This document shows, in pieces, positions 2,061-63,543 of a stretch of 64,000 bases of DNA. Each line of letters starts with the position of its first letter. Position 1 is the stretch's first letter. Source of the DNA: Niastella koreensis GR20-10. GTDB lineage: Bacteria; Bacteroidota; Bacteroidia; Chitinophagales; Chitinophagaceae. Made by a program: the position numbers and the translations under genes. The stretch covers positions 4,910,744 to 4,974,743 of the forward strand of contig NC_016609.1 in the NCBI RefSeq assembly GCF_000246855.1. The letters are read 5' to 3'. The notes beneath the pieces were generated by a model. The model worked only from the letters and a program-made list of their open reading frames with translations, was not told the origin of the DNA and did not search any database.

Positions 2061-2070
2061 AAAGCATAGG

Positions 2071-2136
2071 GTTTAAGGTTTAAAGTTTAAGGTGGCTCGC
2101 GAATGTTGAGCTACGGAGTTACTTTAAACCTTAAAC
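2071..2136. repeat. Inverted repeat of TTTAAGG words between DGPF gene and sigma gene
   Basis: Arms GTTTAAGGTTTAAAGT (2071-2086) and ACTTTAAACCTTAAAC (2121-2136) form a perfect 16-bp inverted repeat around a 34-base loop. It starts 10 bp after the DGPF stop. Each arm is built from near-copies of a 7-8 bp word, and it lacks the GC-rich stem plus T-tract of a standard terminator. Confidence 0.8.
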
Positions 2137-2153
2137 TTTAAACTTCGTATTTT

Positions 2154-3410
2154 ATGGGAAAAGAACAGGAATCATTAAAACAATTGTTCCAGCAGGAGTT
2201 TGCCAAAATGGTGGCGGTTATCAGTAATAAGTTCGGGCTGGAACATATTGAAATGGCCGAAGACATAGTAAGTGAAACCTTTCTGGCAGCATCGGAAACC
2301 TGGGGTATAAAAGGATTGCCACCCAATCCTGCGGCGTGGCTGTACGTGGTAGCCAAACAAAAAACGTTGTATCATTTCAGGCGGCACAAGATCTACGAAC
2401 AAAAAGTTATTCCTGAAATAAAAGCGCAACAACCCCTTCAGTCAGAACCCGAAGCCATCAACTTCTCCCAACAAAATATTAAAGACAGCCAGCTGCAAAT
2501 GCTGTTTGCCATTTGCAACCCGGCCATTGCCAGCGAAGCGCAAATTGGCCTGGCCCTGCGTATCCTTTGTGGTTTCGGCATCGATGAAATTGCCGAAGCC
2601 TTTTTAACCAATAAAGAAACCATCAACAAACGGTTGTTCCGCGCCAAAGAAAAACTGCGCAACGAAAACATTCAGTTGATCCCCATCGATAACACCCTGC
2701 CCGATACCGAACTGGAAAACCGGCTCGACAATGTGCTGCACATCATTTACCTGCTGTTTAACGAAGGTTATTACTCACAAACGGAGAACACCATACTGCG
2801 CAAGGATTTTTGTATAGAAGCGATGCGCCTGGGTATTATGCTCACCGAATACGAACGCACCAACAGCCCCAACACAAACGCCCTGCTGGCCCTGATGTGT
2901 TTTCATGCCAGCCGCTTCAATGCCCGGGTAGACCATGACGATGCGCAGGTATTGTATGAACAACAGAACACCGCCCTGTGGGATACCACCCTCATTAGCC
3001 AGGGCATTCATTTTTTAAACAATGCCGCCACGGGCAATCATGTCAGCTCCTACCACCTGGAAGCAGGCATTGCGTACTGGCATTGTATTAAAGAAGATAC
3101 CCCCGAAAAATGGGCCAGCATCCTGCTCTTATACGATCAGTTGTTACTGATCAACTACTCGCCCGGCGTAGCCCTTAACAGGATCTTTGCGTTATACAAG
3201 GCAAAAGGAAGAGAAGCGGCGTTTGCAGAATCAGCCAAACTGCCCACCAACAACAGCCATTTTTACTTTTTGTTAATGGGTGAACTGTATAATGGTGTAG
3301 ATAATCAACAAGCTTTAGCGTATTATGAACAGGCGCTGGCGCTGGCCAAAACGCAACAGGAAAAACAAGGCATTCAATCAACGATCGATACCCTTTCGGG
3401 GAAAAAATAA
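2154..3410 (+). CDS. ECF42-like RNA polymerase sigma factor with long C-terminal helical extension
   Basis: A 418-residue protein. Residues 1-180 hold sigma-70 region 2 (core-binding helix around EHIEMAEDIVSETFLAASETWG, then PPNPAAWLYVVAKQK) and region 4 (GFGIDEIAEAFLTNKETINKRLFRAKEKLR). The remaining 230 residues are a helical, TPR-like extension (DUF6596 type, RLDNVLHIIYLLFNEGYY). This architecture and the adjacent DGPF gene are the hallmarks of the ECF42 group, which has no classical anti-sigma factor; control is thought to run through the extension. It presumably transcribes its own cluster (AhpD-like, DGPF). The ATG at 2154 follows the inverted repeat directly. The inducing signal cannot be read from the sequence. 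Confidence 0.9.
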   Translation: MGKEQESLKQLFQQEFAKMVAVISNKFGLEHIEMAEDIVSETFLAASETWGIKGLPPNPAAWLYVVAKQKTLYHFRRHKIYEQKVIPEIKAQQPLQSEPEAINFSQQNIKDSQLQMLFAICNPAIASEAQIGLALRILCGFGIDEIAEAFLTNKETINKRLFRAKEKLRNENIQLIPIDNTLPDTELENRLDNVLHIIYLLFNEGYYSQTENTILRKDFCIEAMRLGIMLTEYERTNSPNTNALLALMCFHASRFNARVDHDDAQVLYEQQNTALWDTTLISQGIHFLNNAATGNHVSSYHLEAGIAYWHCIKEDTPEKWASILLLYDQLLLINYSPGVALNRIFALYKAKGREAAFAESAKLPTNNSHFYFLLMGELYNGVDNQQALAYYEQALALAKTQQEKQGIQSTIDTLSGKK

Positions 3411-3478
3411 CTGCATAATTTCCCTTGCGGGTGCTTAATTTCGCAGTCCATTAAGAGCGCCTAAAACCTCAATACCTG

Positions 3479-4378
3479 ATGAAATTACACGTCCTGGTTC
3501 TGTGCCCTGTTATTGTAGCAGTATTGTCTGGTTCCATGCTTGCACCCAAACAGGCAGCCACCTCCCCTGCCGCATTGTATAAAGATTCCGTTCTACATAC
3601 GGCTTTGTTTTCCCCTGATGATGTGGACAGAATAAAACAATTCTTTCTTGCCAATACGGCCCTGCCCGAGCAACCTAAAGATTCCAACTGGCGCCCGGGT
3701 TACAGGCACAAATGCATCAATACCGTACGGGCGGGTTTAGATTACCTCATCTTTGGCGAATCATCCATCCCTGATAGTTTATACAGCCGCCATTCCGTTT
3801 TAAATGGCCACGATAACGACATTACTGCATTGGCGAAAAAATTACAGGAAGGCCATTTCATCCGCAGTTACGATACGGTTCGCTTTTTATCATTGCGCAA
3901 AGATGAATGGGTGCCCATTACCAAGGCCGACCCCGTATCGCGGGGTTTACCACCCATGGCGTTGGAGAAAAGTTTATGGAATACCTTACTTAGAAGGGTT
4001 GGGAAAGAAAGAGGCTTTAGTGTATTCCTGCTTTCGGTATGCGATGGCTATCACGCCGCCCTGCTTACCCTCGATCATCGCAATCCTGCCGACATAAAAG
4101 CTTACTGGGCCGATCAAACCCATCGCCATCCCCTGCGCTTTTTTGCAAATAATAAACTGGAAGAAGTGCCTGGCAAATATGGCTGGGAAGTAATGCAGGC
4201 AAACGGACCGGCCCTGCATTCGGCAGGTTTGGCCCGGGGACTGGATGAATACATGTTGTTAGCCAACCGGCAGTTCTGGTGCGATTGCGGCCGTCCCAAT
4301 CAAAAACCGGGAGATTGTTGTTCAGGAAATTGCTTTCCGTTTATACAGATATGGAGAATACAAAAAGTTCAAAGTTGA
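3479..4378 (+). CDS. Unknown exported protein with possible papain-like Cys/His pair
   Basis: A 299-residue protein that I do not recognise. It begins with a signal-peptide-like stretch (MKLHVLVLCPVIVAVLSGSM) and probably goes to the periplasm or surface. The middle has a cysteine at the head of a helix (KCINTVRAGLDYL, about residue 80) and a later histidine in a hydrophobic strand (DGYHAALLTLDH, about residue 190) followed by AYWADQT. That order resembles papain-fold hydrolases or transglutaminases, but the resemblance is weak. A Cys-rich tail (CDCGRPNQKPGDCCSGNC) may form disulfides. The last codons (KVQS, then TGA) are read out of a tandem word repeat that continues downstream, so the natural C-terminus may have been altered by that repeat. 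Confidence 0.7.
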   Translation: MKLHVLVLCPVIVAVLSGSMLAPKQAATSPAALYKDSVLHTALFSPDDVDRIKQFFLANTALPEQPKDSNWRPGYRHKCINTVRAGLDYLIFGESSIPDSLYSRHSVLNGHDNDITALAKKLQEGHFIRSYDTVRFLSLRKDEWVPITKADPVSRGLPPMALEKSLWNTLLRRVGKERGFSVFLLSVCDGYHAALLTLDHRNPADIKAYWADQTHRHPLRFFANNKLEEVPGKYGWEVMQANGPALHSAGLARGLDEYMLLANRQFWCDCGRPNQKPGDCCSGNCFPFIQIWRIQKVQS

Positions 4379-4394
4379 ATGTTCAAAGTTGAAT
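4367..4394. repeat. Tandem 14-bp word GTTCAAAGTTGAAT x2 overlapping a stop codon
   Basis: Two exact tandem copies (4367-4380, 4381-4394). The TGA stop of the upstream plus-strand gene (4376-4378) lies inside the first copy, and the minus-strand DUF488 gene ends 12 bp beyond the second. The same word recurs near 41188 and 49146. Confidence 0.85.
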
Positions 4395-4405
4395 GTTTTA
4401 ACTGC

Positions 4406-4747: not shown

Positions 4748-4804
4748 AGTATATAGTTTGTTACGTTTATTGAATATACTATGTTTTTGGGAAAGGCACT
4801 AGGC

Positions 4805-4878
4805 AGTGGAAAGGGCAAAAGGCAAAGGCTCCTTCGCGGCAACTCGGAACTCGGAACTCGGAACCTGGAACTGTGAAC
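4805..4878. repeat. Stuttered words GGCAAAAGG and GGAACTC abutting a stop codon
   Basis: Two word families are juxtaposed: AAGGGCAAAAGGCAAAGG (about 4812-4829), then CGGAACT repeated with drift (4841-4878). The latter runs into the minus-strand stop of the AraC gene at 4878-4880. Confidence 0.75.
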
Positions 4879-5882
4879 TAAATACTTTTCAACTTCCCCG
4901 GCGGTATCCCAAACTTTTTCCTAAACGCACTATTGAAGTGTTGTACTGAAGAATAACCGAGCCTGTCGGCTACATCTTTGATGGCCACATTGCGGATGAG
5001 CAGGTCGCGCGCCTGGGTTAATTTATAATCGGCCAGGTAACCAAATACGGTATTGTTATAAAGGGCTTTGAAACCTTGTTTCAATTTAAATTCATTGATG
5101 CCGGCAACACGTGCCAGTTCTGTTAAGGAAGGTGGTTGTGCGGCATGTTGCAACAGGTAGTCTTTGGCAAAATGAATGCTCTCGGTATCGTGTCCGGGTT
5201 TAACTATCAGCGAAGGTGTTTGGGTAGCACGCGCCGCATCTTCATACATCTGTGCCTGTAAGGTCAACAACTCAATACATTTCGATTGCAGGAATAACAG
5301 CTTCAACCCGCCGGTCACCTTCACATTCATAATGTCATGCAGACATTGGTGCATGGCAAATGAAATAGGCATGTTCTCACGGCTCAGTTCGTGTTCGTTT
5401 CCTTGGGCTACTTTTTCGGCAAACTCTATTAATGAGGGACTGCTGTCTTTTGCCAGCTCCAGGAAAAAGCGGGTAGTAAAATGTACCTCCACAAACTTAT
5501 ACCGGTCAAGCTTACCACCGTATTGACCGGTACCGGCAAAAACCGGCGTGTAATGCATGTTATGCTCGTTGGCCTTGAATCGATGTTCTTTTCCAGACAG
5601 CAGGTTCTTCATGCTGCCATCGCCCTGTAAGGTAAAATGCATTTCAACCAGGTCAATTTCGCCGGTTATTTCCCAGTTCAATCGTTTGCTTTCATACAGC
5701 ATCATATCGCCATACACAATATAAATGCCTGAGAAAGCCATCTGCACCATCTCCGCATCGCCAAATGGAAAGCTGAAGATCTCTCTTCGTTCTGTAACCA
5801 ACGGTTGTTCAACTATTTTACTGGAAAACACATCACCCACCTTATACTGGCGACCATTTTCATCATACACATTGACACCCAT
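4878..5882 (-). CDS. AraC-family transcriptional regulator (PchR-like)
   Basis: A 334-residue regulator. The C-terminal ~100 residues contain two helix-turn-helix motifs: LTELARVAGINEFKLKQGFK and KDVADRLGYSSVQHFNSAFR, followed by the family ending KKFGIPPGKLKS. The N-terminal 220 residues form a ligand-sensing region unlike the arabinose cupin and similar in layout to PchR-type regulators that sense siderophores. It is divergent from a siderophore-interacting-protein-like gene across a 108-bp spacer, so it probably controls that gene and perhaps itself. The ligand is inferred from context only. Confidence 0.88.
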   Translation of the reverse strand: MGVNVYDENGRQYKVGDVFSSKIVEQPLVTERREIFSFPFGDAEMVQMAFSGIYIVYGDMMLYESKRLNWEITGEIDLVEMHFTLQGDGSMKNLLSGKEHRFKANEHNMHYTPVFAGTGQYGGKLDRYKFVEVHFTTRFFLELAKDSSPSLIEFAEKVAQGNEHELSRENMPISFAMHQCLHDIMNVKVTGGLKLLFLQSKCIELLTLQAQMYEDAARATQTPSLIVKPGHDTESIHFAKDYLLQHAAQPPSLTELARVAGINEFKLKQGFKALYNNTVFGYLADYKLTQARDLLIRNVAIKDVADRLGYSSVQHFNSAFRKKFGIPPGKLKSI

Positions 5883-7706: not shown

Positions 7707-7711
7707 AGGCA

Positions 7712-10977: not shown

Positions 10978-10994
10978 GTGCTTACGTTTTATTA

Positions 10995-11121
10995 GTCAGT
11001 AGTGAGTTGTCAGTAGTGAGTAGCCTCGCGAATATTTAGACATCTGATTATTCGTGAACTCGTAATTATTCAGACTTTCGAACAATCGGGAACCCACTCA
11101 CTACTCACTACTGACTACTCA
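10995..11121. repeat. Inverted repeat of GTAGTGAGT words abutting a stop codon
   Basis: Arms GTCAGTAGTGAGTAG (11009-11023) and CTACTCACTACTGAC (11101-11115) form a perfect 15-bp inverted repeat. An additional direct copy of the word lies at 10995-11007 and half-copies run into the minus-strand stop at 11119-11121. The element fills almost all the space between PorP and the OmpA gene. Confidence 0.85.
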
Positions 11122-13119
11122 CTTGCTCAATACTTTAAATTCCGTCCTTCTATTCCGCTGCCTTCCATCAGGATTATCACTTCCATCTTCATTCGTATTC
11201 GGTGCAATGGGTTGGGTAGAACCATACCCTTTTGCCTGTAAACGGTTCTTATCAATTCCCTTGCTGATGAGATAGGCTACGCAGGCACGGGCGCGGGCTT
11301 CAGACAAACGCAGGTTGTACTCTTCAGAACCTTTATTATCCGTATGCGCACCAAGTTCTATGGTGATGTCAGGGTGGGCGTTCAGCAGGGCTACCAGTTT
11401 ATCTAATGAAGCGTGGGATTCGCTCCGGAGGTTGGCTTTATCAAAATCATAATACACGTTGTCCATAACAACGGCCTCTTCAACCGGTGGCACATCTTTT
11501 ATTAAACAGATTGCCGGATTGATCAATTGATCTGACTCTTCATCTACGGGCGTATAAAAGGGTAATGCGCCATTGCTGTACCCGCTGATAGTGGCCACTG
11601 CTTTTAAAGGTTGAAATTCATCCAGCGTAAAGGAGTAATTACCATCGTTGGCGGTAGTCTGCGTATACACCACTTTATTTTGAATGGTATCCAGGATGCT
11701 GATGGTAACGCCGGGCAGCGGTTGTTTATCTTCACAGGACACCACCTGACCGATCACCTGTTTACGCGGCAACAGCTTTCTTAAATAAAACAGTTCCAGG
11801 CAACAGGTTGCTTCCCGGTCACTGCTGAGCCATACATCTTCCAGCACATTTCTTACCCCGCCCTTACTAACAAAATAGATATCATCTTTCACCGAGTTTA
11901 CCGGATAACCAAAGTTCACCGGTTGTTTCCAGTCGTTGATATTTCCCTTACTGTAAAAAAAATCATAACCACCCATGCCCACGCGGCCATTGGCTGAGAA
12001 CACCAGCGTGGAAGAAGGCGCATGGTAATAAGGGGCCTGTTCATCATTAGCTGTATTAATTACCCCGCCCATATTTTCTGTACGAGTGGGTTTACCGGTT
12101 CCATCCAGTTCGGCATACCAAAGGTCAAAGCCGCCAAAACCGCCCGGTTTGTCACTGGCATACAACAGGTATTTACCACCCGGCATCACAAACGGCTGCT
12201 GGGTGCTGGCGCCTTCAGCGTTGATTAAACTATCCAGCAGCGCCGGTTCACTCCAGTCCTTTCCGGTTTTATGACTGCTGTAAATACCGGAGAGCTTTCT
12301 GCCGCCTGCGATCGTCCAGCGGGTGAGAAAAAGGGTGTTACCATCAGGTGTAAGGGTTACCACGCCCTGGTGCAGGTCACCGGCTTGTGGTAACGGGAAT
12401 AGTTTTACGTCACCGGTCACCCCATCATTGATGGGTGTTGTATATACCCGGTTTATATGCGATTGGTTCCTGCTGTTACTATCTATGCGGGTGGAAGTAA
12501 ATAACAGGGTATTATCAGTCAGCCATACCGGTGCATAATTGGCGCCTTCCGTATTCAACGGCGAGACTGCCTTTTGAACGTTGTACAACTTCAGGTCTTT
12601 CTTTTTTAACTGGGTCTGAATAAAGCGCAGGCTCATCAATTCTTTTTTTGCCGATTCTGTATACTGATCATCCGACCGGTGTTCATCCAGGAAAACAGTA
12701 AACGCTTTTTCCGACTGTTCATAATCAGCCAGCGCCCGTAATTCTACGGCATAATAATACCGCGCCAATGGAAATTCTGTAGCATGGGCATCCAGGGTTT
12801 GATTATAATAGGTGGCCGCCTTGGCATGGTCGTGCAACAGGCGATAACTCTCCGCCACCCGGTACAATGCCTGCTGGCGGCTGCTTACGGGCACATTGCT
12901 TTTCTTCACTACTGCTGCAGCCGCTGTATACGGACTGTACTCATCTTTTTTTAGTTTCTGCGCAGCAGTACCCAAATACTTTTCGTAATACTGGGCCGCC
13001 GAATAATAATCGGCTTTCTTATAATAATTATCTGCGGCACGCAAATAATCGTAAGAGAACTGGGCCCTGGCTGTAAACAAACTGCAGCTGATAAGCCCGG
13101 TAACAAATAATTTTTTCAT
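11119..13119 (-). CDS. PorE-like OmpA-family protein (TPR, beta-propeller, regulatory-like and OmpA domains)
   Basis: A 666-residue protein with the domain order of T9SS PorE: signal peptide (MKKLFVTGLISCSLFTARA), TPR-like helical repeats (about 20-160), PD40/WD40-like propeller blades (about 175-430, e.g. PVWLTDNTLLFTSTR, GGKYLLYASDKPGGFGG), a carboxypeptidase-regulatory-like domain (about 455-540, VVSCEDKQPLPGVTISILD), and a C-terminal OmpA peptidoglycan-binding domain (about 550-666, YYDFDKANLRSES then ELGAHTDNKGSEEYNLRLSE). Such proteins link the trans-envelope T9SS complex to peptidoglycan. It is sandwiched between two PorP genes, suggesting a dedicated secretion or anchoring module. Stray multi-copy paralogs are common in this phylum, so it need not be the core PorE. 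Confidence 0.9.
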   Translation of the reverse strand: MKKLFVTGLISCSLFTARAQFSYDYLRAADNYYKKADYYSAAQYYEKYLGTAAQKLKKDEYSPYTAAAAVVKKSNVPVSSRQQALYRVAESYRLLHDHAKAATYYNQTLDAHATEFPLARYYYAVELRALADYEQSEKAFTVFLDEHRSDDQYTESAKKELMSLRFIQTQLKKKDLKLYNVQKAVSPLNTEGANYAPVWLTDNTLLFTSTRIDSNSRNQSHINRVYTTPINDGVTGDVKLFPLPQAGDLHQGVVTLTPDGNTLFLTRWTIAGGRKLSGIYSSHKTGKDWSEPALLDSLINAEGASTQQPFVMPGGKYLLYASDKPGGFGGFDLWYAELDGTGKPTRTENMGGVINTANDEQAPYYHAPSSTLVFSANGRVGMGGYDFFYSKGNINDWKQPVNFGYPVNSVKDDIYFVSKGGVRNVLEDVWLSSDREATCCLELFYLRKLLPRKQVIGQVVSCEDKQPLPGVTISILDTIQNKVVYTQTTANDGNYSFTLDEFQPLKAVATISGYSNGALPFYTPVDEESDQLINPAICLIKDVPPVEEAVVMDNVYYDFDKANLRSESHASLDKLVALLNAHPDITIELGAHTDNKGSEEYNLRLSEARARACVAYLISKGIDKNRLQAKGYGSTQPIAPNTNEDGSDNPDGRQRNRRTEFKVLSK

Positions 13120-14300: not shown

Positions 14301-14379
14301 TATCAACTCTATCAACACTATCAATGTTATCAACCTGCTTCTCCTGGTCAACTGGTTAACTGGTCAACTGATCAACTCA
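14301..14379. repeat. TATCAAC/GTCAAC word array ending at a stop codon
   Basis: About nine drifting words (TATCAACTC, TATCAACAC, GGTCAACTG and so on). The last one contains the minus-strand stop codon of the PKD adhesin (14377-14379). Inverted, the middle part matches the CCAGGAGATGCAGG element of 7712 and 9051. Confidence 0.85.
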
Positions 14380-17300
14380 CTTCACTATTGTTATAGAACC
14401 ACTACGTGGCGCATACCCATTCTTTAAATGAATAACATAATAGTAAGTAGCCATGGGCAATGGCTTACCGCCTACCGTTCCATCCCAGGGTGTGCCATAA
14501 CCAGCCGAATAAAATACCCGTTGTCCGTAGCGGTTAAACACTTCCACGGTACAACCGGGGTAATCACTCAGGTTGGAAATATTCCAGGTATCATGAATGC
14601 CATCCCCATTGGGCGAAAAGGCATTGGGCACCAGCACCGGTTTTAATATTTTTACTTTCAAATCATCGGTGGCAATACATTGCCCCTCTCCTATAGCTGT
14701 GAGCGTATACGTTTCATCAACCATCGCCTGCAGCAAGGGGCGTAACGTATTCGGATTACTCAGGCCCGTACCCGGCGACCAGTGGAAACTGAGCACGGAA
14801 GAATCATTGGCCGTAGGATTGAATTGTATTACCGTTCCCTGTGGCACCGTGAAGGAAGGACCAGCATCGATAACCGGTTGCAGGTATACCACCACCTGTT
14901 TGGTAAATGCAGCCGATACGCAACCCACGCCATTCGTTACTTTTAGCTGTACGGTATAATTGCCGGGTTGCTGATATTTTATTACCGGGTCTTTTTTGGT
15001 TGAAGAACTGCCATCGCCAAAATCCCAGCTCCATTGTTGAATGGGACTGTTGGTGGTAGTACTGGCATCGCTGAATTCGGTATTGCTGCCCTGGCACAAC
15101 GTATCGGGCGCTACACTAAAGGCCGCAACGGGCTTGTTGTAAAACGACTGTAATGTTTTGGTGACATTTTTGGTACAACCAAAAGCGGAAGTGGCTTGCA
15201 GGTTCACGGCATAAGAACCCGAAGCACTGTACACATGACTGGCATCGGTGGCATGTGATACGGCACTGTTATCGCCAAAGTTCCAGGTATAGCTAAGGGC
15301 CGAGTTATCAGCTACCGTAGTAGCGTTTTTAAATTCAGCCGCACCACCCGGCATACATACCACTGCAGGTAAACTAAAATCAGTTACCGGCAGCGGATGT
15401 ACAGTTACCGGGGCCGTTGTGGTATCGCTGGCGCACCCCCTATCACTCACGGCAACCAGCTTTATCACGTACGTATTATTTGTAGCCCAGGTGTGGGTAA
15501 ACGCAGTATTGGTATTTTTCGACACCCAGTTGCCATCACCCAGGTCCCAGCGCCAGGTGGTAATGGCGCCCGATGCAATGGTCGACTGATCGGTAAACGT
15601 AACCGACTCATTCAAACAAACATCCGGCGAACCGGTAAATATCCCCACTGGCTTGGGATAAACGGTTATGGTATTGGTTATCGATTCAATACAACCGGCA
15701 GTAGTGGTAAATGTATACGTGATCGTGTGCGTGCCCGCCCCTGCTACGGAAGGCGTAAAATTGCCTGCAGGTGTAGTGCCAGGTCCGCTGTATACACCGG
15801 TACCCGGTACGCCATTGGTAACTGTAGCCGTAGCAACAGAAATGGCAGTTGACTGATTGGCGCAAATGGCGTTTAAGGCCGGGTAATTCAGTTTGGGCCG
15901 CAAACTAAAAGTGGCCGGCACCGAAATATTGTTGGTACATCCGTTGGCAGTGGTTACACTGAACTGGATGGTATAATTGCCGAATGCATAAGTATGGGTT
16001 GGATTTTGCACCGTAGCCGTATTGGGATTGGTTGGCGTAGCATTGGGATCACCAAAGTTCCAGCTCCAGCTGCTGAGCGCCTGTCCATCGGGCACTTTAG
16101 TAGTATCGGTAAATTGAACAATGCCATTATCGGGCAAACAACCGGCCGGGTAACTAAATCCTGCTTTCGGTTTAGCGTATACGGTAACAGGGGCCGTAGC
16201 TGTATCGCTCACACAGGCATTGCTCACCTTCGCCACGTGTTTGGCAGTATAAGTGCCGTATTTGGGATACACCACCGTTTGTGAATTGTTATTATTAGCT
16301 GATGTATTGGTATTGTTCCCATAATCCCAATACCAGGTAGTAATGGGCACGGGTCCGCCGTAAGAGGAGGTTTCACTATAGGTAATACTGCCATCTTCAC
16401 AAACAGAAAGCGGCGTTGCGCTTAAAGTAGTTACCGGTGGCGCAAATACCGTCAGCGATTTGGCAACATCGGCCACACAACCATCGTTAGTGACCACGGA
16501 CAGTTGCACATTCTGGGCGCCGGCAGTAGTAAATAGTTTGGTCGGGTTCTGCGTACCGGCGGTAGTCGCATCCGGGAAAGTCCATTTCCATTGCCCGATG
16601 GTATAGGTACCGGTTGAAGCAGGACCGGTAAAACTCACCGTATCTTTTATACAACCCGTCGGATGCGAGAACGTGAAATCAGCCGTTGGCTTCGGTTTTA
16701 CTTCTATTGAAATTTTTAATTCTTCAGAATTGTTACAACCATCCAGGGAAAGGCTGGTTGACTTAATAGGGATCGTGTACGTACCGGGCGTGTTGAAAAC
16801 ATAAGTACCCGGCAGGGTATATTTGTAATACGTAATACCATTCACCACTACCGTGCCGTCATAGGCACTGGAGGCGGGATCGAGCGTTACATTCGCATTG
16901 GGCGTAACCACACCACCTAAGGTGCTGATGTTCCATACCAGTTTCAGTGGCTGGTAGCGGATGAGCGCCGATAATTTAACCGGGGTATTTACACAGGTAA
17001 ACTGGTGAGGGTTCTTTCCCCCATTGGTTGTATCCGGTTCATTGTGCACACTGCCCACCGCGTTCAGGTTATTCAGGTAAGTACCTACGTTGTATGCATA
17101 ACTCTCCACACTTCCCAAGCCATAAGTAATACCGGTAAACGCAGAGTCGCAGGTGATCAGGCACTGGCCTAAAGGAGCAGCGGGTGGTAAAGGAGCATCC
17201 CAGCGTTTTATCACTACTGTATAACCAGGTATGTTGGGATGCGGATACTGCGCACTGAACGTACCACTCCCGCCTATTCTTAATGAACCTATTCCCAGCG

Positions 17301-18639: not shown

Positions 18640-18664
18640 CCCTTTGCCCTTTGCCTTTTGCCTA
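18640..18664. repeat. CCCTTTGCC words running into a stop codon
   Basis: CCCTTTGCCCTTTGCCTTTT with drifting copies. The minus-strand stop of the giant adhesin (18662-18664) is the CTA of the last word GCCTA. Confidence 0.8.
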
Positions 18665-30907: not shown

Positions 30908-30960
30908 GGAGCAGTAGTTTTATAGTTCTGTGTACTTAGTTCTGAATTCTATGTTTTCTT

Positions 30961-31030
30961 TGTTAACTTGTCAACATGTTAACTTGTCAACCCTGTCAAC
31001 TCTATCAACTTTATCAACCCTATCAACCTA
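30961..31030. repeat. GTTAAC/GTCAAC/TATCAAC array containing a stop codon
   Basis: Eight to nine drifting words fill the space between the DUF4302 gene and the giant adhesin. The final word TATCAACCTA contains the DUF4302 stop (31028-31030). An inverted arrangement of GTTAAC words gives partial dyad symmetry. Confidence 0.85.
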
Positions 31031-32361: not shown

Positions 32362-32469
32362 TCGTGAATCGGCAATCGTGAATCGGCAACCCGCGTCGCG
32401 GCCTTCCTTGTAAACCTGTTAACTTGTGAACCCTGTCAACGCTATCAACTGTATCAACCTGCTTCTTCA
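32362..32469. repeat. CGTGAATCGGCAAT words plus GTCAAC/TATCAAC words abutting a stop
   Basis: Two families are juxtaposed: TCGTGAATCGGCAATCGTGA (about 32362-32390), then GTTAAC/GTCAAC/TATCAAC words (32416-32458) that end in CCTGCTTCTTCA, whose last bases form the minus-strand stop at 32467-32469. Confidence 0.75.
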
Positions 32470-33388: not shown

Positions 33389-33462
33389 GTTCAGAGTTCC
33401 ATGTTCAGAGTTCCGAGTCAGGGCTTTCACTTCAACATTCGATATTCAACATTCAGTATTTA
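33389..33462. repeat. GTTCAGAGTTCC words and AACATTCGATATTC words abutting a stop
   Basis: GTTCAGAGTTCCATGTTCAG (33389-33408) starts a drifting 12-bp word. TTCAACATTCGATATTCAAC (33431-33450) starts another, which runs into the SusD stop at 33460-33462. Confidence 0.8.
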
Positions 33463-34926: not shown

Positions 34927-35048
34927 TTCTGTTCCAGGTTTCAGGTTCACAGTTCCGGGCATTTACTTACTCATTTTCATTCTTCATTTTTCATTTCTGT
35001 ATTTCACTTCAACATTCAATATTCAACATTCGATATTCAACATTTCTA
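34927..35048. repeat. GTTCCAGGTTTCAGG words and AACATTCAATATTC words abutting the SusC stop
   Basis: Same two word families and same order as at 33389-33462. TTCAACATTCAATATTCAAC and drifting copies (35006-35044) end next to the SusC stop (35046-35048). Two consecutive genes of one operon thus carry the same paired element at their 3' ends. Confidence 0.8.
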
Positions 35049-38723: not shown

Positions 38724-38838
38724 AATACAATTAGTTTTTGTAGAACGGTTATACTATTTAGACAAGCAAACTTTTGATTCGGGTGACAGGAAGGACGTAT
38801 ATTTTTATTGGTTGCGGAATTTACGGTTGTGCGTTCAT

Positions 38839-38946
38839 GGCAGACGGCAAACGGCAGAAGGCAAACATGCCTTTCCCTATTGGCTTTCGCCAATGGGTAT
38901 TAGGCCATTACAGAAATGTTTTCATGTCTGCCGTTTGCCGTCTGCC
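38839..38946. repeat. Perfect 20-bp inverted repeat with nested hairpin, between FecR and SusC genes
   Basis: Arms GGCAGACGGCAAACGGCAGA (38839-38858) and its exact complement (38927-38946) enclose 68 bases, inside which CCTATTGGC TTTC GCCAATGGG (about 38877-38898) forms a second hairpin. The right arm lies 4 bp from the FecR stop (38951-38953). The arms are made of the GCCGTTTGCC/GCCGTCTGCC word found at 47950, 48460, 52115 and 58970. Confidence 0.9.
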
Positions 38947-38950
38947 AGTA

Positions 38951-41001: not shown

Positions 41002-41139
41002 TGTACTACAAAAGTTTTGAAACTTACAAACGTTTAATCTAAAAAAGAAAGAAAAAGATATTTAACAGATGTAAGGAATCTATTAAAGTATAGCATTATA
41101 TTTATTGACTTACAGATCGTTGTTAGTTTAAAATTTTAT

Positions 41140-41190
41140 GTTTAAAGTTTTACGTTCCGCTTAAAACTTTAAACCCTGAACTTTGAACTA
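41140..41190. repeat. Inverted repeat of GTTTAAAGTTTTA words running into a stop codon
   Basis: Arms GTTTAAAGTTTTA (41140-41152) and TAAAACTTTAAAC (41162-41174) are a perfect 13-bp inverted repeat. The word continues as CCTGAACTTTGAACTA, whose CTA is the sigma stop codon (41188-41190). Confidence 0.85.
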
Positions 41191-42443: not shown

Positions 42444-42482
42444 AATCGGCAATCGTGAATCGTGAATGACTCACGATTGCTG
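42444..42482. repeat. Inverted repeat GCAATCGTGA / TCACGATTGC after a stop
   Basis: Perfect 10-bp arms (42449-42458, 42471-42480) with an extra direct copy of CGTGAAT in the loop, 25 bp after the TerB-like stop. Confidence 0.75.
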
Positions 42483-42530
42483 AGGTTAATAATTAACTTG
42501 CGCCGCCCGAAATTCATTGCCGGTTGCCGG

Positions 42531-48729: not shown

Positions 48730-49116
48730 GAGGTAAGGAGTATGGATTAAACAAAAGACTTGATGCGATATTCATTGAAATACCGTTAATGGCTAAACAA
48801 TAGCTGACTGACATTCTAAAGGGGGATATTCAAAATAGGCGGACTACAGAAGACTCTATTCCTAGAATAGTTCTTCCTTAAAGAAGATTGTTCTTCAATT
48901 ACAATTGATCTGCTACAGCAATAAAAAGAACGGATGGGAAATGGTACATAAGGTATATCATCCGCTACAATCAGAATGGTTGCCTCACCAATCTTCTTCA
49001 TAGGTAACAATTAATCGACCACTGTATAACAAAATGCTTGCCACTTGTTAATTAATAGCCAAACAACTACGAAGGATAATGAAGTTTTTGGTTGAGCTAG
49101 TAATTCTACGATACCC

Positions 49117-49148
49117 TTTCAACTTAGAACTTTCAACTTTGAACATTA
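49117..49148. repeat. TTTCAACTTAGAAC words abutting a stop codon
   Basis: TTTCAACTTAGAACTTTCAA with drifting copies ends in GAACATTAAAC; the TTA within it is the amine oxidase stop (49146-49148). Confidence 0.8.
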
Positions 49149-50414
49149 AACTATCAACTTAACTACATCTACAGCCGATTGCAAAGCTGCTTCTACTGTT
49201 CCTCCATTATTTCCATCGTACAAACCTTCACCAGCGAAGTATAAAGTATCCTGCACAGGTTTATGCAACAGCGCGCGTGCTTCGTTAGTGAACAATTTAT
49301 TATAACTATACGCGCCCAAACTGCCCGGATTGTTTTGCCACCTGGCTATATGTGATGCGGTTACCAATGATTGAATTTCGTTAACCGGCATGGAGAAGAT
49401 GTTTGCCAGTGATTGCAGGGCATCCTGCAAAACAGTATTGTCGTCTGCGGTTGTGTAGCGCGCAGATTTTGGTCCGCCGAGCCAGCCGGTGAGAATGGCG
49501 TCGGTATCGGGGGCATGTGTCCACCAGGTACGGATGGCCTCTTCGCTTAAAATAAAACCGATATCTTCTTTATACTTCAACCAAAAACGTTCAGAAAATT
49601 GAATGATCACTTTTACCACTGCACCGAAACCTATTTGTTGTAAAGCCTGGACCTGTGCGCTGATAACCGGTTCAAAAGAAATGGCCGTGCTGTGTGCCGG
49701 CGTTGCCTGCAAAACGCCCAGTGGCAGCGTGATGATGGCCTTTTGCGCCGTGAACGCGCGACCATCGGCAGTTATCACTTCCACCCGGCGGAATTGCCAG
49801 CGAATGGTTTTTACCGTGCAGGAAGTATGAACAATACAGCCATCGGCGATACTGGCTTTTTTCAGGTATTCCATAAGCGGAGAATAGCCACCAACAATGC
49901 GGAATTGCTCGCCCTCTTCATGGCTCCATTCATCGCGCAGTCCAAATACACTTACGTCGGAAGGCTCTGCTACATCAAAGCCTTCGGCAAAACGTTGGGC
50001 CGATTGACGCAGCAGGGCATATTTTTCATCACTGAAATATTGTTGCAGAAAGTCCGTGAGGGTCAGATCGGTTTTCAGGTTGGCCATGCGGTCCATCAAT
50101 TCATCCCAACCTTCAATAAACTCCTCCTGGGTGCTCCATTCGCCATTTTTTACCCGCAGCATATGGCCGCCAACCGGCTGATACCGGATGCCTGCTTCTT
50201 CCAACAGCTCCATGGTCAGCGGCAGTTTGCCATGCATAAACTCTGCTCCTTCTTCAATGGGTTTTAAAAACCCCGGCGGTTGAATGGTATGGATGCGGCC
50301 ACCTATCCGATCATTCGATTCCAACACTGTTACCGCAAACCCGGCTGCCGATAATTTCCTTGCTGCCATTAACCCGGTTGCCCCCGCTCCTATGATTATA
50401 ATTGATTCTTGCAT
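49146..50414 (-). CDS. Flavin-containing amine oxidase family protein
   Basis: A 422-residue flavoprotein. The N-terminus carries the dinucleotide-binding fold IIIIGAGATGLMAARKLSAA, then VLESNDRIGGRIHTI (the GG-motif that contacts FAD). The C-terminus has LYFAGEGLYDGNNGGTVEAA followed by LQSAVD, the family's second FAD contact. It should oxidise an amine with oxygen, releasing hydrogen peroxide. There is no signal peptide, so it acts in the cytoplasm. The substrate cannot be deduced. It is 52 bp downstream of the phosphodiesterase gene, possibly co-transcribed. Confidence 0.9.
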   Translation of the reverse strand: MQESIIIIGAGATGLMAARKLSAAGFAVTVLESNDRIGGRIHTIQPPGFLKPIEEGAEFMHGKLPLTMELLEEAGIRYQPVGGHMLRVKNGEWSTQEEFIEGWDELMDRMANLKTDLTLTDFLQQYFSDEKYALLRQSAQRFAEGFDVAEPSDVSVFGLRDEWSHEEGEQFRIVGGYSPLMEYLKKASIADGCIVHTSCTVKTIRWQFRRVEVITADGRAFTAQKAIITLPLGVLQATPAHSTAISFEPVISAQVQALQQIGFGAVVKVIIQFSERFWLKYKEDIGFILSEEAIRTWWTHAPDTDAILTGWLGGPKSARYTTADDNTVLQDALQSLANIFSMPVNEIQSLVTASHIARWQNNPGSLGAYSYNKLFTNEARALLHKPVQDTLYFAGEGLYDGNNGGTVEAALQSAVDVVKLIV

Positions 50415-50428
50415 TTTAAACTTATTTA

Positions 50429-50468
50429 CATTATCAACGCTGTCAACTTTGTCAACCCCGTCAACTTA
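50429..50468. repeat. TATCAACGCTGTCAAC word array containing a stop codon
   Basis: TTATCAACGCTGTCAACTTT, then two further GTCAAC words; the last, GTCAACTTA, contains the stop of the phosphodiesterase gene (50466-50468). Confidence 0.85.
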
Positions 50469-57121: not shown

Positions 57122-57194
57122 ATTCAGAGATTTCGGAATTTAGAGATTTTGAGATTGTCGAAAGGTTCAATCCCGGGCAAATCTCAAAATCTCT
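57122..57194. repeat. Inverted repeat of AGAGATTTTGAGATT words after the ppa stop
   Basis: Arms AGAGATTTTGAGATT (57142-57156) and AATCTCAAAATCTCT (57180-57194) are a perfect 15-bp inverted repeat. The first drifting word ATTCAGAGATTTCGGAATTT begins 4 bp after the stop codon. Confidence 0.85.
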
Positions 57195-57408
57195 ACATCT
57201 TAAAGTCAGCAATCATTTTCTCAGAATAATTTAGGTATTTTAGTACGCCTGACTTTATTGCTGCCTTTTTTTGCAGGCGCACAATTCCTTCCCGCCAATA
57301 CTAACTAATGATGTGGCAGACATAAAATAAGATCATTTTTCTTTTTACCTGCTGACATAGGGTTGTCACCAACCCCCGGTTACTTTGTAGCTACAAAAAC
57401 ACAACACT

Positions 57409-57961: not shown

Positions 57962-58080
57962 GTGAAACGTCAACCGTGAAACGTGAAAGGCCTCGCGACA
58001 AGGCAACATTCCTCACTATTTTCCTATCTCGCTCTTTTTAACTTTCCCCTTTATCAACTCTATCAACCCTATCAACTTCC
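57961..58080. repeat. CGTGAAACGTCAACCGTGAA words and TATCAACTC words before a stop
   Basis: The first family (57961-57989) is related to CGTGAATC of 42449; the second (58050-58080, TTATCAACTCTATCAACCCT and a further copy) ends 12 bp from the minus-strand stop at 58092. Confidence 0.75.
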
Positions 58081-60113: not shown

Positions 60114-60117
60114 AAAC

Positions 60118-60663: not shown

Positions 60664-60708
60664 ATTCTAATTTTCCTGTAAATTGTAGCTTCTTCTTTAC
60701 AACACGAT

Positions 60709-62538
60709 ATGATTATGACAAAAAGAATTTTCCTGATCCTGGCCGTACTATGGTTTTCGCATACCTATGCCCAAAAGATCAACTACACCCTATCCTTTCC
60801 CAATATTAATCACCACGAAGCCAGTATCAGCGTTACGGCTTCAGGTATTCCGGCTGGCAAGGCCACTTTTCGCATGAGTCGTTCTTCACCGGGCCGCTAT
60901 GCCACCCATGAATTTGGAAAAAATGTATACGACGTAAAAGCATTCGACCAAACCGGTGCTTCCATCCCTATTAACCGCATAGACGGCGATGTATATGAAG
61001 TGCCCAAACAAAACGGCACCGTGCGGGTTGATTATACGTTGTACGCCGCCTGGGCGGATGGGACGTACTCCGGCGTTGATCCGGCAAGCATTCACCTCAA
61101 CATGCCTTCGGCAATGATGTGGATCAAAGGATTTGATAAAGCCCCCATCACCGTTACGTTTAATATTCCTGCCGGTAAAAACTGGACCATCGCCACGCAG
61201 TTAAAACCAACGGATGATCCCCTCACCTTTACAGCGCCCGGTTTGCAATACCTGATGGATTGCCCCACCAAGATCGGCAACCTGCACTGGAAAAAATGGA
61301 ACATCACCAATCCCGATGGTAAAGGCTACGAGTTCAGGCTGGCGTTGGAAGCCGAAACTACCGATACAGTGGCTGGTTCATTTGCCGCTAAAATTAAACG
61401 CCTGGTTGAAGAAGAGCAGGCTGTTTTTGGTGAAACGCCGGCGTACGATTATGGCACCTATACATTTATTGCCAGTATTAACCTGTATGTAGAAGGCGAT
61501 GGCATGGAACACCGTAATTCCACCATGATCAGTCTCCCTTTTAATTTTACCGGTACCAATGATCAGTTGGAAGTTTTTGCCCATGAGTTCTTTCATAACT
61601 GGAATGTAGAACGCATTCGCCCGAAAACGCTGGAGCCTTTCAATTTTGAAAAAAGCAATATGAGCAATGAACTGTGGTGTGCGGAAGGGTTTACGCAATA
61701 TTATGGGGAACTGTTGTTATGTCGCTCCGGCTTAAAACCCATTGATGGGTTGATGGGTTCTCTTACCGGTTTAATTTATTCCAAAGAAATAGCGGCAGGC
61801 GCCAAACGCTATTCGCCGGTAGAAGTGAGCCGCAACGCTGTTTTTGTTGATGCAGGGGTATCTATCGACCGCACCAATTACCCCAACATGTACAGTTCTT
61901 ATTATCCATATGGCGGCGCTACGGCACTCGCCCTCGACCTTAGTTTGCGCTCAAAATTCCAATTAACGCTGGATGATTATATGACTGCTTTATGGAAACG
62001 CTTTGGCAAAACAGAGATCGCATATACGGTTCCGGGACTGGAAGAAGTGCTGGCCGATGTTACGCACGACAAAACCTTTGCAGCCGATTTCTTTACCCGT
62101 TATGTGAATGGTCATGAATCGTTCGATTATGCGCCCCTGCTGGAGAAAGCCGGGTTGCGATTGAAAAAACAAAACCCCGGTAAAGCCTGGCTGGGTCAGG
62201 TGCAATATGAAGAAGGCACTACCAAAATCAGCTCCAATACTATTATCAATACGCCGTTGTACAATGCCGGTCTCGACTTTAATGATGTGATCGTGCAGAT
62301 AGACAGCAAACTGGTTGCCCGCCCGGCCGATATCAATGAAATCATCGCCACACATAAACCAGGCGACGTGATCAACATTCATTATAAACATCGCGATGAG
62401 AATAAAACCGCTTCGCTTACCCTGGCCGAGAACCCGGGTTTGGCAGTGGTTACTTTTGAACAGGCTGGTTTACCGGTTACCAATGAGATGAAGACATTCA
62501 GGAATAGCTGGCTGGGAACGAAGGTCAATAGACAATAG
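60709..62538 (+). CDS. M61 family metallopeptidase with PDZ domain
   Basis: A 609-residue exported peptidase (signal peptide MIMTKRIFLILAVLWFSHTY; an ATG two codons later is also possible). The N-terminal M61 domain (about 25-180) precedes the catalytic domain with EVFAHEFFHNWNVERIRPKT (HExxH at about residue 290) and the downstream glutamate region CAEGFTQYYGELLL. A PDZ domain lies near the C-terminus (about 500-580, NTPLYNAGLDFNDVIVQIDS). Members are glycyl-aminopeptidase-like enzymes. The last codons (VNRQ and TAG) are encoded inside the left arm of a perfect 15-bp inverted repeat. Confidence 0.93.
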   Translation: MIMTKRIFLILAVLWFSHTYAQKINYTLSFPNINHHEASISVTASGIPAGKATFRMSRSSPGRYATHEFGKNVYDVKAFDQTGASIPINRIDGDVYEVPKQNGTVRVDYTLYAAWADGTYSGVDPASIHLNMPSAMMWIKGFDKAPITVTFNIPAGKNWTIATQLKPTDDPLTFTAPGLQYLMDCPTKIGNLHWKKWNITNPDGKGYEFRLALEAETTDTVAGSFAAKIKRLVEEEQAVFGETPAYDYGTYTFIASINLYVEGDGMEHRNSTMISLPFNFTGTNDQLEVFAHEFFHNWNVERIRPKTLEPFNFEKSNMSNELWCAEGFTQYYGELLLCRSGLKPIDGLMGSLTGLIYSKEIAAGAKRYSPVEVSRNAVFVDAGVSIDRTNYPNMYSSYYPYGGATALALDLSLRSKFQLTLDDYMTALWKRFGKTEIAYTVPGLEEVLADVTHDKTFAADFFTRYVNGHESFDYAPLLEKAGLRLKKQNPGKAWLGQVQYEEGTTKISSNTIINTPLYNAGLDFNDVIVQIDSKLVARPADINEIIATHKPGDVINIHYKHRDENKTASLTLAENPGLAVVTFEQAGLPVTNEMKTFRNSWLGTKVNRQ

Positions 62539-62568
62539 GCAATTGTCAATTGTCTATTGTCTATTGAC
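62524..62568. repeat. Perfect 15-bp inverted repeat of CAATAGACAATAG words containing a stop codon
   Basis: Arms GTCAATAGACAATAG (62524-62538) and CTATTGTCTATTGAC (62554-62568). The left arm supplies the last codons and TAG stop of the M61 gene (62536-62538); the right arm is followed by a weak T-run. The same word is at 51862-51900. Confidence 0.92.
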
Positions 62569-62664
62569 TTCTTTGGTTTTAATGTAGGCGGTAAGAACGT
62601 TCGCTTTGAAATGTTACAGGGACTGGCCATGAAGAACACAGGAGAATGGAGCCGTGGTGTACAA

Positions 62665-62695
62665 CGTGTCAACTCTGTCAACCCTATCAACCTTA
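62665..62695. repeat. GTCAACTCTGTCAACCCTAT words containing a stop codon
   Basis: GTCAACTCTGTCAACCCTAT then CAACCTTAT; the TTA (62693-62695) is the minus-strand stop of the CutC gene. Confidence 0.85.
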
Positions 62696-63418
62696 TAAAC
62701 TGATATTATTCAACACTTCCATTATCTTTCTCAGTTCTTCTTCATTGGCGATGTACCAATCGGTAGCATCCAGAATAGCCGGATTGCGGAAGGTAACCGG
62801 GTCCGGCGCAATCATTCTCGCTGAAGTATGAAACTCCGTGGCGCCCGTACCATTCACCAGCGTTTCAATATTGCCGGACCGCACACCAGCGCCGGGCATA
62901 ATGATAATACGGCCATCGGCCTGTTGTACCAGTTCGGCCAGCAGGTTAATACCCTCAGGAGCCGATGGTTTTTGTCCGCTGGTTAAAACGCGCTCACACC
63001 CGCAGGTTATAATATCTTCCAGCGCCTTCATGGGATCGGGCGTGGCATCAAAAACGCGGTGGCAGGTAACGCCCATGGGATAGGCCCATTCCACCATCCG
63101 TTTTAACCGCTCGGTATCTATTTCGCCGTTCCCTTTTGATACGCCGGTTGAAATGCCGTCGCAGCCCAGTTCTTTACACAACAGGATATCCTGTTTTATA
63201 ATGGCGAACTCATCTTCATCAAAGAAATAATTTCCCGCCCTTGGCCGCACAATGGGATACAACGAAATGCCGATCTTTTCGCGTGTTTGTTTTATAGTTC
63301 CATAAGAAGGCGTGGTGCCGCCATCGGCCGGGTTCTCACATAACTCTACCCGCTTTGCTCCCACTTTTTCTGCAATAACAGCCGATTGCAGGTTAAACGC
63401 ACATACTTCTAATAACAT
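62693..63418 (-). CDS. cutC: Copper homeostasis protein CutC
   Basis: A 241-residue TIM-barrel protein. CutC signatures are LEVCAFNLQSAVIAEKVGAK, then RVELCENPADGGTTPSYGTI, YPIVRPRAGNYFFDEDEF, LGCDGISTGVSKGNGEIDTE, MGVTCHRVFDATPDPMKALE, CGCERVLTSGQKPSAPEGIN and IIIMPGAGVRSGNIETLV, with a final TEFHTSAR. The family is linked to copper handling, though direct copper binding is debated. Length and conserved residues are normal. Confidence 0.95.
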   Translation of the reverse strand: MLLEVCAFNLQSAVIAEKVGAKRVELCENPADGGTTPSYGTIKQTREKIGISLYPIVRPRAGNYFFDEDEFAIIKQDILLCKELGCDGISTGVSKGNGEIDTERLKRMVEWAYPMGVTCHRVFDATPDPMKALEDIITCGCERVLTSGQKPSAPEGINLLAELVQQADGRIIIMPGAGVRSGNIETLVNGTGATEFHTSARMIAPDPVTFRNPAILDATDWYIANEEELRKIMEVLNNISL

Positions 63419-63461
63419 GCTCTTGTTTTAATTGTTGCTATATTAACTTAAGAAACTGTTA

Positions 63462-63543
63462 CAGGTTACAGGGTTGCCGATATCACGATTTGAGCCTGGA
63501 AATTCGAGCCTTGTAACCTGAAATAGGTAACAACTTTACTTTA
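63462..63543. repeat. CAGGTTACA / TGTAACCTG inverted repeat near a stop codon
   Basis: Perfect 9-bp arms (63462-63470, 63512-63520) with further drifting copies (AGGGTTGCC, ATAGGTAACA) reaching the minus-strand stop at 63541-63543. Confidence 0.65.

What the first reader, a model, noticed from the sequence alone, without database searches (positions are those of the whole stretch)
2069..63543. Stuttered-word elements placed at stop codons of many unrelated genes
Seen directly: at about 20 of roughly 45 gene 3' ends (for example 2060, 4378, 4878, 9961, 11119, 14377, 18662, 31028, 32467, 33460, 35046, 38951, 41188, 42424, 49146, 50466, 57118, 58092, 62538, 62693, 63541) a 7-15 bp word repeated with drift begins within about 20 bp of the stop, and often contains the stop. 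At least a dozen sequence-unrelated word families are used in the same place, and about half carry a perfect inverted copy. This is position-specific rather than sequence-specific, which is unlike REP or MITE families. Possible roles: mRNA 3'-end protection, transcription ending, or insertion of slippage-generated DNA at tolerant sites. Similar low-complexity intergenic words occur in other environmental Bacteroidota, but I know of no established function.
Basis: seen in the sequence. Interest (0 to 1): 0.8.

Follow-up and report, generated by a model that had tools for sequence, protein, structure and literature searches.

The report
Stuttered word arrays at gene ends
In the soil bacterium Niastella and its relatives, short stuttered DNA words sit just after many stop codons, nearly always in the same strand direction, and seem to take the place of ordinary transcription stop signals while their spelling changes from species to species.

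Summary
Near-tandem arrays of 7-, 8-, 9- and 11-bp words fill noncoding DNA (period 7 about 150-fold above shuffled). They lie at 144 of 868 gene ends against 49 of 882 starts in 1.264 of 9.03 Mb. In tandem gene pairs they start a median 0-8 nt after the stop; random placement gives 25-47. By size the genome is Niastella koreensis GR20-10.

Within a region purine-type (R) words precede complement-type (Y) words: 130 adjacent pairs against 6, held-out stretches and six congeners included. Words have fixed cores and free positions. At orthologous stops presence is conserved, the word mostly not. Array-bearing ends have fewer intrinsic terminators.

Best reading: rapidly rebuilt two-way 3'-end insulators or terminators (confidence 0.42). 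Against it: array stems lack the G.U excess of ordinary hairpins and no T tract follows. Xanthomonas and Nostoc have one-word repeats with the same placement (PMC4692102). This is a many-word variant of that kind; quadruplexes do not explain it.

The parts
1627..1647 (-). 7-bp array after the stop at 1623; exception: reads Y on the coding strand
2061..2153 (+). R-Y hairpin after the stop at 2060: R array GGTTTAA 2067-2093, Y array 2121-2145
4364..4397 (+). 7/14-bp array GTTCAAAGTTGAAT overlapping the stop at 4378, between convergent genes
4841..4879 (-). 7-bp array (AGTTCCG) at the stop 4878
11001..11123 (-). R-Y pair AGTSAGT: array 11096-11123 at the stop 11119, partner array 10993-11023
14301..14377 (-). 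8-bp array (AGTTGACC) 14344-14377 at the stop 14377, then 9-bp array (GTTGATA) 14301-14333
18640..18663 (-). 7-bp array (AGGCAAA) at the stop 18662
30960..31028 (-). 9-bp array GTTGAYARN followed by an 8-bp GTTRACNN array at the stop 31028
32425..32458 (-). 9-bp array after the stop at 32467
33431..33460 (-). 14-bp-period array (TTCAACATTCAATA on the + strand) at the stop 33460; seen by TRF only
35008..35044 (-). 7/14-bp array (GTTGAATATTGAAT) after the stop at 35046
38838..38947 (-). R-Y hairpin GGCARAC after the stop at 38951; both 21-nt arms paired without mismatch, 68-nt loop
41126..41174 (-). 14-bp-period array 41126-41156 and hairpin 41140-41174, 14-32 bp out from the stop at 41188
42444..42483 (+). 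R-Y hairpin (AATCGTG, AATCGGC words) after the stop at 42424
49116..49159 (-). 7/14-bp array overlapping the stop at 49146
50428..50467 (-). 9-bp array GTTGAYARN at the stop 50466
57129..57207 (+). 8-bp GATTT-type R-Y hairpin after the stop at 57118
58049..58076 (-). 9-bp array GTTGATAGR after the stop at 58092
62522..62570 (+). R-Y hairpin CAATAGA overlapping the stop at 62538, 3-nt loop
62667..62700 (-). 9-bp array GTTGATAGG at the stop 62693 (convergent partner of 62538)
63456..63526 (-). hairpin without a detected array after the stop at 63541

Best explanation
The arrays are two-way insulator or terminator elements at gene 3' ends. A few species-specific words, each a short fixed core plus two or three free positions, are copied and stretched by slippage and template switching in the DNA between genes. 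Where they make the order 'R words, centre, Y words' they are kept because they hinder transcription from either side, so that an ordinary hairpin-plus-T-tract terminator is no longer needed and is lost. The site is then conserved while the words turn over. Shown here: placement, R-then-Y polarity, core and free positions, site conservation with word turnover, partial exclusion of intrinsic terminators, strong folding of the 3' regions. Inferred: that RNA ends there, that selection keeps the arrays, and that slippage and template switching make them.
For: Enrichment at stops over starts, 144/868 against 49/882, and short distance to the stop. More noncoding bases covered between convergent than divergent genes: 0.099 against 0.038, 0.192 against 0.039, 0.186 against 0.089. 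Polarity 130:6. Presence conserved at orthologous ends, words not. Canonical terminators at convergent ends: own 5/41 with array against 36/92 without, congeners 3/35 against 17/55; discordant orthologous ends: terminator only in the array-less member 22, only in the array-bearing member 5; logistic coefficient -1.14, 0 of 500 stratified permutations. RNA of the 120 nt after the stop folds better at array ends: mean z -2.94 (R-Y) and -2.42 (R only) against -1.15, 45 ends each. Neisseria uptake-word pairs, thought to act as terminators, show a like +- polarity (PMC1852404 section 13). In Xanthomonas, transcripts start or end more often in quadruplex-forming repeats than in control repeats (PMC4692102 section 15).
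Against: Array stems show no G.U over A.C preference on the transcribed strand (155:152; 38 hairpins to 40), while ordinary hairpins of the same tandem regions do (101:54; 46 to 17, p 3e-4). Hardly any T tract follows the Y arm: 8.4% of 119 against 5.7% at random places. R-only ends lack terminators as much as R-Y ends (12/89 against 19/142, p 1.0), so the test does not single out the hairpin. A third of R-Y pairs (44 of 133) share no 6-mer and cannot pair as whole words. Arrays also lie between divergent genes and before some starts. The discordant-ortholog result is thin when each ortholog group counts once: on average 3.4 against 0.55 in 26 mixed groups. 105 of 143 discordant pairs have a terminator in neither member. 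No RNA data.
Confidence: 0.42

Rival explanations
1. Neutral or selfish slippage DNA. Arrays arise at and overrun old terminator hairpins or post-stop DNA, are tolerated there and purged from promoters and genes. The R-then-Y order comes from snap-back copying of R-type 3' ends, perhaps helped by R-loops once the ribosome has left the RNA.
For: No G.U preference in array stems. Coverage near 10% of noncoding bases in most places away from starts. Words multiply in one species: the 9-mer pattern matches 108 times in own genome and 0 to 24 times in nine congeners. Loss of terminators could be damage rather than replacement. Slippage is the standing explanation for heptamer repeats (cited in PMC4679880 section 3).
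Against: Arrays start nearer the stop than uniform tolerance allows. Presence at the same orthologous stops with other words. Changes sit at fixed free positions, not all along the word. Polarity holds between divergent genes too, 15:0, where no transcript leaves a gene, against an R-loop origin.
Confidence: 0.33
2. Arrays of binding sites: one or several proteins or RNAs bind the word cores on DNA or on mRNA 3' ends; the free positions are spacers.
For: Fixed cores and free positions that recur in held-out stretches and congeners.
Against: At least 14 different cores in one genome and word turnover at the same stop would need many binders or a very loose one; none was found or sought.
Confidence: 0.12
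3. Rho loading sites: Y words in RNA (C 27%, G 13%) load Rho on transcripts that cross the element from either side.
For: Y-strand composition C over G, and YC 12.2 per 100 nt against 4.5 on the R strand. R-then-Y order from both sides.
Against: TC and CC are not above what base composition gives (0.78 and 0.89). In 73 of 133 pairs the R array is of the same family and could mask the Y array. Rho binding preferences are recalled, not from a call.
Confidence: 0.08
4. Fail-safe stop codons: R words carry stop triplets in several frames after the gene's own stop.
For: Stop triplets 675 on the R strand, 350 on the Y strand, 513 after shuffling; all three frames stopped within 40 nt in 35% of array ends against 18% shuffled.
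Against: Several frequent words carry none (GGCARAC, GTTCCAG). Does not explain Y arrays, divergent regions or terminator loss.
Confidence: 0.04
5. G-quadruplex elements, as discussed for Xanthomonas and Nostoc repeats.
For: Same placement and strand preference (PMC4692102 section 13).
Against: Only 3 of 343 arrays match a G3+ quadruplex motif on the R strand and 33 a G2+ motif.
Confidence: 0.01

Closest known systems
GGGAATC repeats of Xanthomonas and GGGGA(C/T)T repeats of Nostoc (PMC4692102; passages and sections 13-16 seen)
   Same: Short repeats, mostly intergenic; within 50 bp of stop codons on the coding strand and overlapping stops; before starts on the non-coding strand; under-represented between divergent genes; single or inverted pairs; mostly kept in the same gene context between two species, with changed length and sequence.
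   Different: One G-rich heptamer per genome that can form quadruplexes. Here at least 14 words of 7, 8 and 9 bp, few with quadruplex motifs, free positions inside words, word replacement at orthologous stops, and exclusion of intrinsic terminators.
Paired DNA uptake sequences of Neisseria and Pasteurellaceae as terminators (PMC1852404; outline and section 13 seen)
   Same: A short repeated word and its inverse make hairpins with one preferred polarity, enriched between convergent genes, thought to be used as terminators.
   Different: A single motif with A and T tails. Here many tandem words, long loops, hardly any T tract.
TAACTGA heptamer repeats of marine Beggiatoaceae, some cyanobacteria and five Bacteroidetes (PMC4679880; abstract, sections 3 and 12 seen)
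   Same: Intergenic heptamer direct repeats; in two Bacteroidetes other heptamers lie beside them.
   Different: In the main genome most lie just upstream of start codons and related heptamers are rarely repeated; here gene ends prevail.
Intrinsic (hairpin plus T tract) terminators
   Same: Place after the stop; inferred function; strong fold.
   Different: Hardly any T tract, long loops, no G.U preference; the two tend to exclude each other.
REP/BIME palindromes (PMC3733652 seen in a search listing only)
   Same: Repeated extragenic inverted sequences.
   Different: One conserved palindrome family against many degenerate tandem words.

Membership tests
Xanthomonas/Nostoc heptamer repeats (PMC4692102) | Intergenic, near the stop, repeat word on the coding strand | tested here: met
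   72:5, 47:7 and 64:6 near stops; 144/868 ends against 49/882 starts
Xanthomonas/Nostoc heptamer repeats (PMC4692102) | Before starts, word on the non-coding strand | tested here: met
   R:Y on the coding strand 13:33, 2:23 and 5:16
Xanthomonas/Nostoc heptamer repeats (PMC4692102) | One G-rich heptamer able to form quadruplexes | tested here: not met
   14 word families of 7-9 bp; G3+ motif in 3 of 343 arrays
Xanthomonas/Nostoc heptamer repeats (PMC4692102) | Kept in the same gene context between species | tested here: met
   Odds ratio 2.8, group permutation 0 of 2000; but the words mostly differ
Intrinsic terminators | Stable hairpin after the stop | tested here: met
   Mean fold z -2.94 (R-Y) and -2.42 (R only) against -1.15, 45 ends each
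Intrinsic terminators | T tract after the hairpin | tested here: not met
   6 or more T in 8 nt after the Y arm in 8.4% of 119, random places 5.7%
Intrinsic terminators | RNA-level pairing kept (G.U over A.C), as in ordinary hairpins here | tested here: not met
   Arrays 155:152, ordinary 101:54
Intrinsic terminators | RNA ends at the element | not testable with these tools
   No RNA data held
Paired uptake sequences | +- polarity of the pair | tested here: met
   R-Y 130 against Y-R 6
Paired uptake sequences | One genome-wide motif | tested here: not met
   14 families
Paired uptake sequences | DNA uptake of marked DNA | not testable with these tools
   Needs a transformation assay
TAACTGA repeats (PMC4679880) | Mostly just upstream of start codons | tested here: not met
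   49 of 882 starts against 144 of 868 ends
REP/BIME | Conserved 20-40-bp palindromes of one family | tested here: not met
   Tandem degenerate words of many families; definition from a search listing
REP/BIME | Associated RAYT transposase (recalled) | not tested
   No search was made for it

The most novel reading that the evidence does not exclude
A many-word, T-tract-free, two-way 3'-end signal in Bacteroidota that replaces intrinsic terminators. Its meaning lies in strand polarity and in short fixed cores with free positions, not in any one sequence, so each species writes the same signal at the same stop codon in its own words. The one-word repeats of Xanthomonas and Nostoc would be simple dialects of it.
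Probability: 0.3. Interest if true: 0.88.

Novelty: new variant of a known kind. Interest (0 to 1): 0.7.

Why it matters
Heptamer repeats beside stop codons were described in Xanthomonas and Nostoc with no function assigned. A genome that uses at least 14 words under the same strand grammar, few of them able to form quadruplexes, takes the quadruplex out of the explanation. It also offers a natural experiment: orthologous stops with the same kind of element in different spellings, and others where an array and an ordinary terminator stand in for each other. If arrays end transcription, terminator predictors miss a class of signals in these bacteria. If they do not, the fixed cores, the polarity and the site conservation call for a mutational mechanism that the passages I read do not describe.

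Tried and rejected
Rfam at gathering thresholds found nothing in the window and ARAGORN no tRNA. Quadruplex: 3 of 343. Weak RNA:DNA hybrids as the cause of polarity: small difference, Y weaker than R in 81 of 133 pairs. Rho YC code: YC not enriched beyond composition. TCGCGA as an obligatory centre: of 72 intergenic CGCGA/TCGCG sites 19 lie between R and Y arrays and 40 have no array near. RNA-level stem selection: no G.U excess. R-Y against R-only as a test of the hairpin: no difference in terminator loss. Uniform tolerance: rejected by distance to the stop. Bias from arrays that supply the stop codon: checked with arrays that begin after it; polarity stays, 35:5, 19:5, 43:4.

Literature: none of the ten paper searches listed a report of these arrays in Niastella or its order; at most 20 titles were shown per search and the library lacks most subscription journals. 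Recalled, not from a call: cyanobacterial STRR repeats, Rho binding preferences, RAYT.

Limits: my own gene finder; 1.264 of 9.03 Mb of own genome; 400 kb of six congeners; R/Y labels from a 5-mer classifier trained on 75 own hairpins (own sample 1 is the training set except in the leave-locus-out tests; own sample 2 and congeners are held out); arrays of period 21 only dropped from polarity, ortholog and terminator counts; gene ends with under 60 nt of noncoding DNA dropped from the terminator and orthologous-presence tests; ortholog pairs are not independent, hence the group permutation.


Full report
WHERE. The window is G000:C1:4910744-4974743 of a single 9,033,684-bp contig. That is exactly the size given for Niastella koreensis GR20-10 in PMC3751351 (passage). 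Six congeners are named by equal contig length and place of the M61 peptidase gene: G001 N. vici, G002 Niastella sp. OAS944, G003 N. caeni, G004 N. soli, G007 Longitalea luteola, G009 N. yeongjuensis.

I called genes with a hexamer model in 864 kb (the window plus 40 evenly spaced 20-kb stretches) and scored every period from 4 to 30. Intergenic DNA has near-tandem segments at periods 7 (65), 14 (44), 21 (26), 8 (27), 16 (16), 9 (13), 18 (5), 11 (7) and 20 (5), none at 6, 10, 12 or 13; for period 7 that is about 150-fold above shuffled sequence, and coding DNA has almost none. In the window 19 of 41 ends and 4 of 41 starts have one, against a mean of 1.44 ends after shuffling. In 1.264 Mb of own genome it is 144 of 868 ends and 49 of 882 starts, so the window is nearly three times richer than the sample as a whole. 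Extrapolation gives about 2,450 arrays per genome, median length 32 bp. Arrays cover about 14% of noncoding bases in the first 40 nt after stops, 3-6% in the last 40 nt before starts and near 10% at most other distances. So part of the effect is avoidance of 5' ends, but arrays also start nearer to the stop than random placement allows, with or without a promoter guard.

A STRAND GRAMMAR. Array hairpins have a consistent first arm: leave-locus-out classification puts the expected arm first in 67 of 74. I call the first-arm words R (A 35, G 26, T 25, C 14%) and their complements Y. After a stop, R reads on the coding strand: 72:5 in own sample 1 (training), 47:7 in own sample 2 (held out), 64:6 in six congeners (held out); within 40 nt before a start it is mostly Y, 13:33, 2:23 and 5:16. 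Adjacent arrays in one region are R then Y 130 times and Y then R 6 times (54:3, 31:1 and 45:2); by orientation convergent 28:1, tandem 87:5, divergent 15:0. Of 133 R-Y pairs, 73 are of one word family (8% at random) but 44 share no 6-mer (81% at random), so the order does not depend on pairing alone. Arrays that begin after the stop codon show the same polarity, so stop triplets inside the words are not its cause.

WORDS WITH FREE POSITIONS. Copies do not drift evenly. In the 9-mer GTTGAYARN positions 1-5 are 97-100% fixed and position 7 is 93%, while neighbouring copies differ at 35, 51 and 67% of positions 6, 8 and 9. GTTRACNN, AATKNGMT, CAATWGR, GTTNCAR and others behave likewise. In the held-out own stretches and in congeners largely the same positions are fixed or free; the contrast is weaker for some 7-base words in congeners. 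Composite elements chain an 8-mer array, a short spacer and a 9-mer array, in L148 with a true terminator in the middle, then Y arrays (20 loci chosen because they match the 9-mer).

SAME STOP, OTHER WORD. At 399 orthologous pairs with at least 60 nt of free DNA in both (575 reciprocal pairs in all), arrays are in both 81 times, in one 143, in none 175 (odds ratio 2.8, p 1.6e-6). A permutation over 38 ortholog groups, stratified by species, orientation and length class, never reached the observed clustering in 2000 runs. Words agree little: mean 6-mer overlap 0.115, against 0.034 for random pairs; 17% of 96 co-present pairs exceed 0.25, against 3.6% at random. Example: the CutC stop carries GTTGATAGG in own genome, GGCAATG in G004, GTGAGTGG in G003, GAGTTATTCAGTTATT in G007, GGTGAATGGTCAAT in G001 and a plain terminator in G002.

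VOCABULARY AND RANGE. The 9-mer pattern matches 108 times in own genome, 0 to 24 times in nine congeners and in none of the 197 other genomes of the order sample, which held no congener. GTTNCAR triples match 192 times in own genome and in 5 of 117 other genomes of the phylum sample; the control (the pattern read backwards) has no match in own genome but matches in six others, up to 81 times, so other words are in use elsewhere. In 16 stretches of 20 kb from other genera arrays were sparse or absent. Three of four genomes of another family sampled further (G184, G200, G149) have arrays with other words that look R-then-Y by eye; polarity was not scored there. At the M61 stop 8 of 79 public loci were flagged, five of them Niastella or Longitalea; one of these (L195) reads Y after the stop and one flag outside the group (L270) is doubtful by eye. 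Many Dyadobacter loci have a short GC hairpin there, by eye.

ARRAYS AND TERMINATORS TEND TO EXCLUDE EACH OTHER. Hairpin-plus-T-tract terminators: own genome convergent ends 5/41 with array, 36/92 without (p 0.002); tandem 7/90 against 55/292 (p 0.014); congeners 3/35 against 17/55 (p 0.018) and 3/40 against 17/80 (p 0.07). With array-free length, orientation and species in a logistic model (725 ends) the array coefficient is -1.14, 0 of 500 stratified permutations. At 143 discordant orthologous pairs the terminator is only in the array-less member 22 times, only in the array-bearing member 5 times, in both 11, in neither 105; with one random pair per group the means are 3.4 and 0.55 over 26 mixed groups, so the independent evidence is thinner than the pair count. 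RNA after array-bearing stops folds well: mean z -2.94 (R-Y) and -2.42 (R only) against -1.15 (45 ends per class, block-dinucleotide shuffles).

AGAINST A SIMPLE RNA HAIRPIN. Ordinary hairpins in tandem regions prefer G.U to A.C on the transcribed strand (101:54; 46 hairpins to 17, p 3e-4). Array hairpins do not (155:152; 38 to 40). Hardly any T tract follows. R-only ends are as poor in terminators as R-Y ends. So either the function is two-way, which would cancel the G.U signal, or it lies in polarity rather than pairing, or the stems are too young to show selection, or arrays simply overrun terminators. I put 0.42 on a two-way insulator or terminator and 0.33 on neutral or selfish growth.

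KNOWN RELATIVES. After these tests I found PMC4692102 (passages and sections 13-16): GGGAATC in Xanthomonas and GGGGA(C/T)T in Nostoc lie within 50 bp of stops on the coding strand and before starts on the non-coding strand, overlap stops, are under-represented between divergent genes and mostly keep their gene context; transcripts start or end more often at the quadruplex-forming ones; no function was assigned. Neisseria uptake words also prefer the +- order and are thought to serve as terminators (PMC1852404 section 13). TAACTGA repeats favour starts (PMC4679880 abstract). A survey of perfect inverted repeats reports a peak 50-80 bp after stop codons in bacteria (PMC13155455, passages). The present case is therefore a many-word variant of a known kind. 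Free positions inside words, word turnover at fixed sites and terminator exclusion are not in the passages I read.

Noticed in passing
47463-47844: A 42-bp tandem repeat, about seven copies, unlike the word arrays.
   Followed up: no
L015:9819-9961, L016:6956-7140, L007:15200-15279: Intergenic arrays of period 21 with other degenerate words; a separate class, left out of the polarity counts.
   Followed up: no
L011:11802-12084: About 280 bp with a long, nearly perfect run of one 7-bp word (GCTTTCA), possibly a recent expansion.
   Followed up: no
L017:3498-3827: A whole array hairpin repeated about three times in tandem with a 120-bp period.
   Followed up: no
L194:3300-3400; G009 (joined L098-L101), CutC end: In some species the reading frame runs into the array, so that the protein's last residues are made of array words.
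   Followed up: partly
own genome and congeners, between arrays: TCGCGA is the most over-represented 6-mer of array-masked noncoding DNA (64 against 38.7 expected, both strands) and is sometimes the centre between R and Y arrays.
   Followed up: partly
G287, G296 (phylum sample): The reversed control pattern matches 81 and 39 times, so other heptamer words are abundant in other Bacteroidota.
   Followed up: no
18662-30907 and 14377-18612: A 4081-aa ORF beside a 1411-aa protein with PKD repeats and a CHU_C type IX secretion domain.
   Followed up: no
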